Assembly: GCF_039555335.1 (NCBI RefSeq)
Contig: NC_092637.1
Coordinates: 2,934,001 to 2,998,000, forward strand
Reading direction: 5' to 3'
DNA: 64,000 nt
From: Amphiura filiformis
Taxonomy: Eukaryota > Echinodermata > Ophiuroidea > Amphilepidida > Amphiuridae
In this document: positions 26,918-46,614 of the stretch, piece by piece
How the letters are laid out: every line of letters begins with the position of its first letter
Position numbering within the stretch: position 1 is the first letter of the stretch
Notes under the pieces: model-generated
What the model was told of the DNA's origin: nothing
What the model saw: only the letters and a program-made list of their open reading frames with translations
Databases searched by the model: none
Translations under genes and position numbers: made by a program

Positions 26918-29900
26918 CTGCCAAGAAAAAATAAAATGATTAAACACATATGAGAATATTTTTTTATCCAAAATATCTAAGTTCATATTCAAATCCCGCA
27001 CTTCGGTGCGTAATGTTAAAACGAGATGGAACCTTTACTTCTAACTCATCAGTAGATGACTACTTCATCAACACCAATTTCAGCAGTAAATAAGCACTTC
27101 AGCAACCCCTCCGTTCTTAAAGTCATAATGTACGATCTTATAATATGAATTTGGTTAATTTTTTCAAACCTGATTTTTTGGCATATTTGTAATGTTTACA
27201 CATGTCACAACTTGCACCTAAATGGAATCAGCCAAATTTGTTGTGTTTGTAGGTAAACAGAGCAAAGTTCGACATAAAGTCATAATTAAAAAATATGACT
27301 TTATGTCCGCCCATAGAACTGCGTGTTAAACGACCAAAATAACAAGCAGTGTTTCTTTCACGTTACCTCGTTATTTCAGCTCAAAATGGACAGAAACCAT
27401 TCCCGATCATTATTACTAGTATTATTTCAGCATTTTGAGTATATAATGACAAATTTAAAATTTGAAGAAAATCGTACATTAAGCCTTTAACTGTAACTCC
27501 TAATTACCTTGTGGAAGTCGGGCGATCACACCATCAATAGTGGGACGATCGTGGCGGTCTATCTTCCAGCAGAGTGGGAGCAAGTCCTCCACATACCTCG
27601 GAAAAGTATGTCTAATATTACTGATTGGTTGGCCCCATATACGAGCTCCTCTGACATCCTGGTGGGCTGTTGGCATCTCTTGGGTTGTGATTTCCCATAT
27701 CAAAACACCGAAGGCATATATATCAGACGCAGTAGAGAATTTGGATGACATGAGTAGCTCTGGGGCCATCCAAGCTTCAGTACCTTTGCGGGAACAAGTG
27801 CCTGATAAATGAAAATGACAATAAGGAAACAAAAAAATGATAAAGCCGTAAACCAATGAAGAAAGGAAAGAGAGAAAGAAGGAAAAAAGATAAAGGCAGA
27901 AAGGGAGAAAGGCAGAAAAGGAAGTGGCAGAATGGAAGTGGTAGAGAAAGTAAATTGATTGATGTGATCGAGTCAGTGATTGAGTGAGGAAGGGCATTAT
28001 TACATGAGCGAGTGAGTGAATGAAGACAATGATCAATTGAGTGGGTTGTTTGATTATTATTATGAACAAATAGGAAGAAATTAAATCAAAAAGGATTAAA
28101 AAAATGAAAGAAAGGAAGACAGATAAAGGGAAAGCATCATACAAATGTCATATGAATGACACGAAATGGTAGAAATTGATTGATTGATATGACCGAGTCA
28201 GTGATTGAGGGAGTGAGCGAGCGAGTGAATGATCAATTAATTGTTCATCACTTACCAGTAGTATGGTCCGTTTCTTCTGCGATTCCAAAATCACATAATT
28301 TCACCAAATCTCCAGCAAACAGCAGGCAATTATCAGCTTTGATGTCACGATGAACAACAGGCTTCCAAGTACCATTTGCATTGGGTAATCCGGCATGCAG
28401 ATATTTGATGGCTGATGCGCATTCCGTTATCCACTTTTCCTGAAGTGCCTCACTGACGCCACCTCTATTTCTGTTCAGACGTGCCCGGAGTGATTCATCA
28501 GCCAACTCGGTAACTATCACGGAAATCATGCCTTCATGGATGTAATCAATAAACCTTACAATGTGTGGATGGTGAGCTGTCTTCAAGATGTGGATCTCCT
28601 TCGCGTTCATTATGCGCAAATTCTTAGCGGCAGCTAAAACGTGACCCTTGTAAGACCCCTGTTTGAAAGTGACGCGGAAAACGGTACCGAATTTACCGCT
28701 GCCGATCGGAGGATTGTGAGTTATCATATCAGAATACTTCAGGTGGTCGGTACTTTGATAACTTGTCTCTGCCGTCAAATGGGTCGTAATCATAGGTTGT
28801 TGCCCCGACGGCGGTTTCTCATTGACTTCAAAGGCGGTCGGATCGCTTTGCTGAGGAACGTGCCTCAGCAGTTGTAGCTCTTCCAACAATTTGTCTTTTG
28901 CCAGATCTACGGCTTCATCTTTAGGTCCAAAGTGACGAACATTAACGCTGGTCCCCGTTGCAGTATCTTTGATTTTGACGTCCGTTTTAATTGGCTCTTG
29001 AAGACTGTGGAATCGGATTTTCGTTTGGTACTGAAATTGTCGTCCTTTGTGAGTGATCTGTAATGAAAATGATAATTGTAATGAGAGTTTTTACTTTTTT
29101 GAAGACGTTTTTTAAACTTCTTGTGAATCAATTCAAAACGGTGCAGGTGTTTGTGTCCGTGACTTCTCTCTAGTCCGAAGGGTCGCTAGTTCGAAGGTTC
29201 TCTAGTCCGAAGGGTCGCAAGTCCGAAAACCAAATTAAGTTCGCTAATCCGAAGGTTCTCTAGTCCGAATATAGAATAAGGGTTAGTGATAGGGTTTAGG
29301 ATAGGGTTTGGGTTAGGGTTAGCGAGCCTTATTCTATAGGACTAGAGAATCTTATTTATTATTCGGACTAGCGAACCCTCGGACTATAGATAACCCGATA
29401 TTCGGACTAGCGAACCTTTTTCAGAATTCGAACTAGCGAATGGTAAATTACGTGTTCGGACTAGCGAACCTTCGGACTATGGAGCATTCGGAATAGGGAA
29501 CCTTTGGACTAGAGAGTTGTCACCGTTTGTGTCACCCTGCACCTTGCATAAGATATTTTTGACTCATGTTATCATCATCAACAGCGTACTTCGCACTTCT
29601 CTTTGAGAAATGTTTTGGATGCCTGAGACGTTCTAAACGGTAATGATTTCCACATCGTAAATATTGGTTGGTTACAGATATTTGTCAATTAAAAGAAAAG
29701 TAAAACTGAAAAAGTTAAACAAATCGTTCTTGTCCATTAATAGACATATTACGTGCTTATTAACATTTTTTATGGTATTTCATTAAGGGATCCAAAATGA
29801 GCGTTTATTGCGTTTCGACAGTATTTTTTGTGGGACATGAGAGCACCCCAGACCTATCGAATTGCATTCTGAATACGAAGCATGTCTTTCTGATATCAAA

Positions 29901-30521
29901 TAATTTTCATTTTATAAAAATCACAACATAATACAAATTTTATGACAAATTATAAAATTTGATATTTTTCAAATTTTTGATATATAACAGTCCTCGAAGT
30001 AAATTATATAAATCTAATGATATATTCTTAAAGTGTATGTAGCAGGAGGAAAAGCCGACGGTCAATTGAAAATTTTGACCTTTCATATTGAAGATATGGA
30101 TTTTTTCCCAAAAAGACCTAATTTTTGTTTGTGTTTTGGAAAAAAAATCCATATCTTCAATACGAAAGGTCAAAATTTTCAATTGATCGTCGGCTTTTCA
30201 TCCCACCTACATACACTTTAAGTATAAATCATCAGATTTATAAAGTTTACTTCAAGTACTGTTAAATATCAAAAATATCAATTTTACTGATTTGCCATAA
30301 AATGTGTATTAAATTGCGAATTTCAAAAAATTATTTGATATCAGAATGACATTCTTCATATTCAGAATGCAATTCGATATGTCTGATGTGCTCTAATGTC
30401 CCAAAATAAATACTGTCCAAACGTTCATACCCCAGCCCTTAACAGTAAAGCACTTAAAACTTACATGAACTGGTGGATCGAATCCCGTAGTAGCACCTTT
30501 GAGAAGATTCATGAAATCCAT
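26841..30521 (-). CDS. TKL-type protein kinase, copy B, with N-terminal domain shared with the caspase
   Basis: Four exons on the minus strand (30521-30465, 29057-28256, 27801-27508, 26917-26841) join in phases 0, 1 and 1 to 409 residues. Residues 20-88 form a small domain, predicted beta-rich with a C-terminal amphipathic helix, which aligns without gaps with the first recognised caspase exon (46398-46614). A polar linker (about 89-124) leads to a complete kinase domain: IGSGKFG from 137, Lys164, HRDIKADN with Asp257, DFG at 275, GTEAWMAPELL. The tail ends ESEIDLK. The TKL assignment rests on the WMAPELL/SDIYAFGVLIWE pattern. The gene is a tandem duplicate of kinase A and appears to keep the ancestral architecture. 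Intron 2 contains a tandem duplication of about 220 bp, and intron 3 a piggyBac-type MITE that kinase A lacks. Confidence 0.9.
27047..27110. repeat. Two-unit relic of the minisatellite in the kinase B intron
   Basis: TCAGTAGATGACTACTTCAT and CATCAACACCAATTTCAGCA followed by AGTAAATAAGCACTTC match the 3' edge of the large array in kinase A (18740-18800), at the equivalent intron position. Confidence 0.8.
27121..27486. mobile_element. piggyBac-type MITE in the kinase B intron, with empty site in kinase A
   Basis: Ends AGTCATAATGTACGATC and GATTTTCTTC-side GATCGTACAT-type inverted repeats (right end ATCGTACATTAAGCCT), flanked by TTAA at 27117-27120 and 27487-27490. Kinase A at the same place reads GTTCTTAACTGTAACTCC with a single TTAA, an apparent empty site. 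Diverged relatives are at 41890-42130 and 60785-60985. Confidence 0.8.
27508..27801 (-). CDS. Kinase B exon 3: activation loop and C-lobe
   Basis: Begins with the split Gly codon and TCSRKGTEAWMAPELL; ends RLPQG with donor GTAATT. Protein-identical to kinase A exon 2 over the last 86 codons. The open frame continues into the intron at its 5' side, but the acceptor CAG at 27804-27802 is conserved with copy A. Confidence 0.9.
27806..28250. repeat. Tandem duplication in kinase B intron 2
   Basis: GATTGATGTGATCGAGTCAG (27957) recurs as GATTGATATGACCGAGTCAG (28180), with similar purine-rich sequence before each. Kinase A has a single unit in its shorter intron (19131-19348). Confidence 0.6.
28256..29057 (-). 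CDS. Kinase B exon 2: shared domain, linker and kinase N-lobe
   Basis: Acceptor TTTTCATTACAG; begins ITHKGRQFQYQTK. The shared domain includes GTSVNVRHF and DLAKDKLLEELQLL. The exon ends at HTTG with donor GTAAG at 28255-28251. Phase 0 to phase 1. The domain and the kinase N-lobe are in one exon. Confidence 0.9.
29157..29523. mobile_element. TIR element with CGGACTAG repeats and telomere-like core
   Basis: Ends GTGACTTCTCTCTAGTCC and GGACTAGAGAGTTGTCAC are inverted. The interior has at least ten TTCGGACTAGCGAACC-type motifs, CGAAGG-oriented in the left half and inverted in the right, around a degenerate TTAGGG block at 29278-29325. Confidence 0.65.
29787..30440. mobile_element. Palindromic MITE in kinase B intron 1
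   Basis: Long inverted arms: GACAGTATTTTTTGTGGGAC and TATCGAATTGCATTCTGAAT on the left, mirrored at 30320-30430. An inner palindrome (30040-30200) is built of TCAATTGAAAATTTTGACCT and its inverse. It ends only 25 bp from exon 1 of kinase B. Confidence 0.7.
30465..30521 (-). CDS. Kinase B exon 1
   Basis: Encodes MDFMNLLKGATTGFDPPVH, donor CAT|GTAAGT, phase 0. Supported by alignment of its start and 5' flank with kinase A exon 1 (GAATGGAT and the upstream TATA-like motif). Confidence 0.75.
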
Positions 30522-30934
30522 TCTACTGTCGGATTACTTTACTGGGGATATAAAAAAACACATATTAATATACCGCAATTAAATAAGATTTAAAATCGTC
30601 TTTGCAGAAAGACGATGACCACTATATGGCATAAGACACACCTTAAAAAACATTTTAGAGCATTATATTTGTCAGGGACGGGGCTCTATAATATTCAACA
30701 CAGGCGCAGAACACTAAGCAACCTACATCGAATAACCATCGCTCCACGAGTTTGGTACAGATATAGACGACACAGGAGAATTTCAAGCTAGTTCAATTTA
30801 GTTTTTTCATAATAGAGATTGACACTGTGGGCTCAAAACTCTTACTGCCATGCACCATTATAATAACAGTCGAACACATTGATTAAAATTAGTAAGCTAA
30901 TAGGCCTACCGTATCTAATTTACTGGTGAGTATT

Positions 30935-46352: not shown

Positions 46353-46397
46353 TGTGTTGTACCATGGGGTTGTACTTTCTACATTTTTTCTCAGCAG

Positions 46398-46614
46398 ATG
46401 ATATACATGGGCCGGACCATCCAGTGGTCAACGAAGGGCCGTGTCCATAGTGCAGATGAACTATGGGTCTACGACGGTACCGCGTGGGATATAGCAAGTG
46501 GAACAAGCGTCGAAGTGAAGCATTACAAAGAGTCTCATGATGCAAAGAAAGCGGCTGTTGATAAGCTGATCACACGCCTGAAACAGGAAGGGATCATTAA
46601 GGATGAAATCCACG
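46398..46614 (+). CDS. Caspase exon with the shared N-terminal domain
   Basis: Acceptor TTTTTTCTCAGCAG before 46398; begins MIYMGRTIQWSTKGRVHS and contains GTSVEVKHY and DAKKAAVDKLITRLKQEG. Ends in phase 1 before GTAATT. Starts in phase 0, four residues before Gly-Arg, exactly as the kinase B domain exon does. The first Met could be the start or an internal residue. Confidence 0.85.

What the first reader, a model, noticed from the sequence alone, without database searches (positions are those of the whole stretch)
28256..46614. A caspase and a TKL kinase share an unassigned N-terminal domain
The domain in kinase B (exon 29057-28256, protein residues 20-88) and the first recognised caspase exon (46398-46614) align without gaps: I count 24 identities in 57 positions from the shared Gly-Arg to the end of the helix, including HS, GTSV and DKL. 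Both domain exons start in phase 0 and place Gly-Arg four residues after the splice site, so a common origin is strongly supported. The pattern (three predicted strands then an Ala/Lys-rich helix) resembles the second half of a double-stranded-RNA-binding domain, but canonical dsRBD residues are not clear, and it is not an obvious death, DED or CARD fold. Family knowledge: RIP kinases and initiator caspases pair through shared adaptor domains in vertebrates. Inference: this may be an analogous, undescribed recruitment module linking kinase and caspase signalling.
Basis: partly seen in the sequence, partly recalled or inferred. Interest (0 to 1): 0.92.

Follow-up and report, generated by a model that had tools for sequence, protein, structure and literature searches.

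The report
Kinase and caspase share N-terminal domain
In an unnamed animal genome, a signalling kinase and a cell-death protease carry the same small, uncatalogued front-end domain, probably a relative in shape of double-stranded-RNA-binding domains, which suggests that both enzymes may listen to the same trigger.

Summary
The two exons align without gaps over 57 positions with 24 identities; the alignment score is 99 against a maximum of 46 in 5000 shuffles. In the kinase the domain shares an exon with the start of the catalytic domain, so that fusion needs no splicing. In the caspase it is joined by a six-exon model with consistent phases; this link is inferred. A two-sequence AlphaFold model (mean pLDDT 88) gives strand-strand-strand-helix. 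In the structural second look 38 of 50 rows shown are dsRBD-bearing proteins, but no Z exceeds 7.9 and Foldseek has no PDB match below E 0.1. Sequence profiles do not make it a dsRBD; the one Pfam lead is a sub-threshold match of the caspase copy to Nuc_N. The kinase's best solved relative is ZAK/MLTK. A tandem paralogue lacks the domain. Best reading: a noncanonical dsRBD-fold input module that clusters two effectors. dsRNA binding and kinase-caspase pairing are untested. dsRBD caspases are already reported in bivalves.

The parts
30465..30521 (-). Kinase B exon 1: MDFMNLLKGATTGFDPPVH, ends in phase 0; may supply an alpha-1-like piece before the domain (guess)
   Evidence: gtaagt donor; the start region aligns with the start of kinase A
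28256..29057 (-). Kinase B exon 2: shared domain, linker and N-terminal part of the kinase domain in one open reading frame
28872..29057 (-). Shared domain, kinase copy (protein residues 20-81)
27508..27801 (-). Kinase B exon 3: rest of the kinase domain
26841..26917 (-). Kinase B exon 4: C-terminal tail and stop; total 409 aa
19349..19919 (-). Kinase A first coding exon: same start region and kinase domain (86% nt identity to B over 611 aligned columns), no shared domain
18834..19127 (-). Kinase A second coding exon
46398..46614 (+). First recognised caspase exon; holds the shared domain, residues 1-63 (46398-46586); phase 0 in, 1 out
49005..49202 (+). Caspase exon 2 (predicted): charged linker, phase 1 in and out, no homology support
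58242..58354 (+). Caspase exon 3 (predicted): acidic linker, phase 1 in, 0 out, no homology support
59633..59797 (+). Caspase exon 4: start of p20
60514..60751 (+). Caspase exon 5: p20 with SHG and QACRG catalytic motifs
63546..63722 (+). Caspase exon 6: intersubunit linker and start of p10; gene runs off the window

Best explanation
A roughly 63-residue strand-strand-strand-helix module, built like a dsRBD core but without its canonical RNA-binding signature, serves as the N-terminal input domain of a MLK/ZAK-like kinase (kinase B) and, by the gene model, of an effector-like caspase. The most likely mechanism is that the module binds one common ligand, either an RNA or a protein partner, which brings several enzyme molecules together so that the kinase trans-autophosphorylates and the caspase zymogen is activated by proximity. 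Shown here: homology of the two domains; fusion to the kinase in one exon; catalytic motifs in both enzymes; a predicted topology of good model confidence; a paralogous kinase without the module. Inferred: splicing of the caspase exon to the caspase, the dsRBD-type fold family, ligand binding, clustering and any cross-talk. The closest functional model is Dicer's DUF283, a dsRBD fold reported not to bind dsRNA but to bind partner proteins and single-stranded RNA.
Confidence: 0.45

Rival explanations
1. Canonical dsRNA sensor: the domain binds viral or endogenous dsRNA and so activates the kinase in the manner of PKR and the caspase in the manner of the engineered DRACO protein or the proposed role of bivalve DSRM caspases.
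For: dsRBD-like predicted fold. Bivalve Cg3C-like caspases carry two DSRM domains and were proposed as viral detectors (PMC7836458, passages). DRACO shows that dsRNA-induced caspase activation can kill cells (PMC3144912, abstract). His17 before the first turn is invariant; the caspase copy reads GRVH.
Against: No dsrm profile match. In my hand alignment of the last helix the KKxAK lysines (motif recalled) are only partly present: SHDAK in the caspase, KDEAV in the kinase. Only mildly basic: 10-11 K+R against 8-9 D+E, pI about 9.1. One domain per protein, whereas PKR has two (recalled).
Confidence: 0.2
2. Homotypic adaptor: the kinase copy and the caspase copy bind each other, or a third protein with the same domain, as RIP kinases and caspases pair through death-fold domains.
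For: The same domain sits on a kinase and, by the model, a caspase; a dsRBD fold can serve as a protein-binding module (PMC4820750, passages; the top row is a dsRBD in complex with a protein). The TRADD-N domain shows similar logic in the sponge Amphimedon, where some proteins end in kinase and others in caspase domains (PMC8195603, sections 8 and 10).
Against: At 39% identity over 62 aligned residues the two copies may have different partners; no third copy is in the window; no interaction was modelled.
Confidence: 0.2
3. Sheet-face nucleic-acid binder of another beta-beta-beta-alpha class related to Pfam Nuc_N, not to dsRBDs.
For: Nuc_N matches the caspase copy at E 5.9e-5 (23.3 bits), 2.7e-5 when trimmed; 0 of 8 shuffles match it. 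A polar side of strand 1 is conserved.
Against: Below the curated cut-off of 25 bits, and only 20.3 bits in the whole spliced caspase; neither the kinase copy nor the consensus of both matches it; the structure rows shown are mostly dsRBDs. What Nuc_N itself looks like was not learnt.
Confidence: 0.12
4. Shared cassette without shared signalling: exon shuffling placed the domain on two unrelated enzymes and it now has separate jobs, or the caspase-side exon belongs to another transcript.
For: Two linker exons lack homology support; kinase A lacks the domain yet pairwise dN/dS with B is about 0.12 (NG86) or 0.16 (YN00), so it does not look decayed; repeats lie close to both domain exons.
Against: Phases agree across all six caspase exons; the 42 plus-strand ORFs scanned between hold no Pfam match at E 0.01.
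Confidence: 0.2

Closest known systems
Bivalve DSRM caspases (Crassostrea gigas Cg3C-like A and B; also listed for Mytilus coruscus)
   Same: Effector-like caspase with an RNA-binding-type domain in the prodomain in place of CARD or DED
   Different: The oyster proteins have two DSRM domains, named as such by the authors; here one domain that no dsrm model recognises. No kinase sharing the domain was mentioned in the passages I saw. Homology of the domains not tested
Dicer DUF283 (noncanonical dsRBD fold)
   Same: dsRBD-like core reported to contact proteins and single-stranded RNA; basic sheet surface proposed
   Different: Sits in a ribonuclease; its fold includes the first helix; no sequence match seen here
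PKR (EIF2AK2)
   Same: N-terminal dsRBD-type module on a kinase (general knowledge)
   Different: Kinase here is closest to MLTK/ZAK, one domain not two, no dsrm profile match
RIP kinase and initiator caspase pairing through death-fold domains
   Same: One adaptor domain shared by a kinase and a caspase (general knowledge)
   Different: Predicted beta-rich domain, not a helical bundle; no RIPK among the nearest solved kinases shown
Metazoan TRADD-N (NCOA6 clade)
   Same: Adaptor domain fused in a sponge to kinases in some proteins and caspases in others
   Different: RRM-like fold with four strands and two helices; here three strands and one helix, and no Pfam match to it
Pfam Nuc_N (PF14448)
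   Same: Sub-threshold match to residues 26-66 of the caspase copy
   Different: Kinase copy does not match; below the curated cut-off

Membership tests
dsRBD (dsrm) | Three-stranded sheet followed by a C-terminal helix | tested here: met
dsRBD (dsrm) | N-terminal helix before the first strand | tested here: inconclusive
   Absent from the modelled caspase exon; kinase exon 1 could supply it, the exon before the caspase exon is unknown; no spliced product was modelled
dsRBD (dsrm) | Sequence profile match | tested here: not met
   No dsrm, DSRM_2 or DND1_DSRM hit for either copy; RNase III control hits; hhalign to six RNase III dsRBDs at chance level
dsRBD (dsrm) | KKxAK at the start of the last helix (motif recalled) | tested here: not met
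   SHDAK and KDEAV in a hand alignment of the helices
dsRBD (dsrm) | Binds dsRNA | not testable with these tools
   Needs a binding assay
Nuc_N (PF14448) | Score at or above the curated cut-off of 25 bits | tested here: not met
   20.3 to 24.4 bits for the caspase copy by context, none for the kinase copy
Death-fold superfamily (DD, DED, CARD) | All-helical bundle | tested here: not met
   Model has three strands and one helix; no Pfam death-fold hit
TRADD-N | RRM-like fold, four strands and two helices | tested here: not met
   Model topology; feature from PMC8195603 section 8; no TRADD-N-type Pfam hit
Caspase (Peptidase_C14) | Catalytic His and Cys motifs in p20 | tested here: met
   SHG and QACRG in the spliced model; Peptidase_C14 E 1.1e-30
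Caspase (Peptidase_C14) | Complete p10 | not tested
   Gene runs off the window after 63722
TKL kinase (MLK/ZAK-like) | Protein kinase domain with catalytic motifs, closest to MLK-type MAP3Ks | tested here: met
   Pkinase E 1.1e-42; MLTK best at 3.8e-30; HRDIKADN and DFG present. Nearest-hit evidence only, no tree was built
RIP kinase | RIPK among the nearest solved kinases | tested here: inconclusive
   None among the 60 of 129 rows shown; no tree built

The most novel reading that the evidence does not exclude
A death-fold-independent input module, a noncanonical dsRBD that reads RNA or a partner through its open sheet face, wires a MAP3K-type kinase and an effector-like caspase to the same trigger: a natural pairing of a PKR-like kinase arm and a DRACO-like caspase arm in one invertebrate locus.
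Probability: 0.22. Interest if true: 0.85.

Novelty: new variant of a known kind. Interest (0 to 1): 0.6.

Why it matters
Kinases and caspases in cell-death signalling are best known to be joined through death-fold domains (general knowledge). A different small domain doing this, with a dsRBD-like shape, would point to a separate route from nucleic-acid or partner sensing to kinase signalling and cell death in invertebrates. The tandem kinases with and without the domain are a ready natural control, which makes the idea directly testable.

Tried and rejected
Searches for relatives gave none that convince. Viral contigs with the two-row alignment and with each copy and genome contigs with the alignment returned no confirmed relative, though these scans use short peptide patterns and are insensitive. 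Phages: no match for either copy. Plasmids, caspase copy only: one weak place in Azospirillum (E 0.04) that begins upstream of trkA; taken as chance. PDB by sequence: the single caspase copy gave an ESCRT-III chain at E 0.72; the two-row profile gave a designed repeat helix bundle at E 2.2e-4, the sum of three helix matches that are each at E 8 to 10, taken as chance. PADLOC gave nothing for the domain; NCBIfam gave a weak PrfH match at E 0.015, in a stretch where one search also lists PrfH structures; PHROGs gave a match at E 0.03 to a family of unknown function.

A dsRBD by sequence was tested with hhalign on six RNase III dsRBDs and failed; that profile is small and comes from E. coli and phages, so it does not exclude eukaryotic dsRBDs. 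A consensus of the two copies also failed to hit dsrm. A candidate first exon upstream of the caspase exon was sought by likeness to kinase exon 1; the best were minisatellite matches, most with stops. Close prokaryotic relatives of the kinase pair were sought in genome contigs and none was confirmed, although defence-kinase profiles of PADLOC do match the kinase domain. Nuc_N was searched in one plasmid record (0 of 1) and rings in 6 of 14 control genomes, over the cut-off in 0. Among the 50 rows I saw no AP2-type or integrase arm-binding domain; absence there excludes nothing. A second structure prediction with the kinase copy first was not accepted and never ran.
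Full report
What was checked. The ungapped alignment has 24 identities in the 57 columns from Gly-Arg to the end of the shared helix. BLASTP of the two gives E 3e-13 for a single comparison. The local alignment score is 99; 5000 shuffles of the caspase copy gave a mean of 22.9 and a maximum of 46. 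Searching the window's stop-to-stop ORFs of at least 20 residues with the kinase copy finds the caspase exon at E 1e-7 and, besides itself, nothing below E 3. A two-sequence HMM likewise finds only these two copies above its inclusion threshold. Homology is therefore secure, and the window has two recognisable copies.

Gene models. Kinase B is a complete four-exon gene on the minus strand: 30521-30465, 29057-28256, 27801-27508 and 26917-26841, with GT/AG splice ends, consistent phases and a 409-residue product. The shared domain (residues 20-81), a linker and the first part of the kinase domain lie in one exon, so that fusion does not depend on a splicing guess. The caspase model has six exons: 46398-46614, 49005-49202, 58242-58354, 59633-59797, 60514-60751 and 63546-63722, with out-phases 1, 1, 0, 0, 1, 1. 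The spliced product matches Peptidase_C14 at E 1.1e-30 across exons 4 to 6 and carries SHG and QACRG; p10 runs off the window. Its best solved relatives are effector caspases 3/6/7 and caspase-2 (60 of 94 rows shown). Exons 2 and 3 are charged linkers without a Pfam match, and the domain lies 13 kb from p20. Of 45 plus-strand ORFs of 48 residues or more between the domain exon and p20, I scanned 42, leaving out three low-complexity ones; none matched Pfam at E 0.01. Domains split over shorter exons would be missed. The caspase is thus the nearest plausible owner of the exon, but this is an inference. The first codon of the caspase exon is ATG directly after an AG, so an upstream exon and a start at that ATG are both possible.

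A natural comparison. Kinase A (exons 19919-19349 and 19127-18834, minus strand; further exons not sought) is a tandem paralogue of kinase B. Over 611 aligned columns the DNA is 86% identical, and the start-codon region also aligns, at 78% over 102 columns. Between these two aligned blocks kinase A has about 60 bases and kinase B about 1750, which hold the rest of exon 1, an intron, the domain and the linker. Which of the two lost or gained the domain is unknown. Over 762 aligned coding bases dN is 0.035 and dS 0.284 (NG86), or 0.037 and 0.227 (YN00). A pairwise ratio of 0.12 to 0.16 is what one expects if both genes are kept by selection, one with and one without the domain.

What the conservation suggests. 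If strand residues alternate between the two faces, strand 1 has one side of I/F, W/Y, T, V/F with Arg6 and a Gly/Ile position, and another side with Q9, K13, R15 and H17 identical in both copies. This would put a conserved polar strip on the open face of the sheet. Canonical dsRBDs bind RNA elsewhere (recalled). DUF283 of Dicer has a dsRBD fold, is reported not to bind dsRNA, binds partner proteins and ssRNA, and a basic sheet surface has been proposed for this (PMC4820750, passages read). With only two sequences this is a hypothesis.

Mechanism. The kinase has a complete catalytic domain with best solved relatives MLTK/ZAK, then DLK, CTR1 and TAK1; the 60 of 129 rows shown include no RIP kinase. 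Enzymes of these two kinds are commonly activated by being brought together (general knowledge). I therefore take the module to be an input domain that clusters its enzyme on a ligand. Whether the ligand is dsRNA, other RNA or a protein, and whether kinase and caspase meet on it, is open.

Against what is known. Two oyster caspases with two DSRM domains each were described in 2021 as a motif not reported before for any caspase, and proposed as potential viral detectors (PMC7836458, passages). A mussel study lists DSRM among caspase domains (PMC10967218, passages). TRADD-N proteins of a sponge end in kinases or caspases among other domains (PMC8195603, sections 8 and 10 read; passages). Two amphioxus papers (PMC3196919 and PMC2575513, 12 of 17 and 12 of 18 passages seen) describe novel death-fold and receptor combinations; in the passages shown there is no domain of this kind. 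An engineered dsRNA-activated caspase oligomerizer works in cells (PMC3144912, abstract). My searches on these themes (of which I saw 15 of 199, 15 of 90, 4 of 4, 1 of 1 and 4 of 4 papers listed) showed no report of such a domain shared by a kinase and a caspase; the library lacks most subscription journals and all bioRxiv preprints.

Limits. No eukaryotic genome or protein collection could be searched, the species is unknown, and no transcripts are available. The second structure prediction, on the kinase copy, could not be run.

Noticed in passing
60970-62463: Reverse-transcriptase ORFs of a LINE-like element (RVT_1, E 4.1e-30 for the first ORF) sit in the caspase intron between the p20 exon and the linker/p10 exon.
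   Followed up: partly
45784-46354 and 50983-51528: Inverted repeats (longest blocks 97, 91 and 89% complementary; 84% over 578 columns) flank the first two caspase exons; the left arm stops 43 bases before the domain exon.
   Followed up: partly
29811-30423: Foldback sequence (81% inverted match to itself) inside intron 1 of kinase B, the intron just before the domain exon.
   Followed up: partly
14539-18782 and 34779-36760: Long 34-bp minisatellites (about 127 and 58 copies): one ends just past kinase A's second coding exon, the other lies about 4 kb upstream of kinase B.
   Followed up: no
5688-8719: RING-finger ORF (E 3e-8) followed by ORFs that include a coiled-coil-like one on the plus strand, possibly a TRIM or RNF-type gene.
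   Followed up: partly
28256-29057: The PADLOC mad6 profile of a bacterial defence kinase scores kinase B's exon at 107.8 bits, above Pfam Pkinase at 85.2 bits.
   Followed up: no
46742-46815: tRNA-like sequence with unresolved anticodon in the first intron of the caspase model, possibly a tRNA-derived repeat.
   Followed up: no
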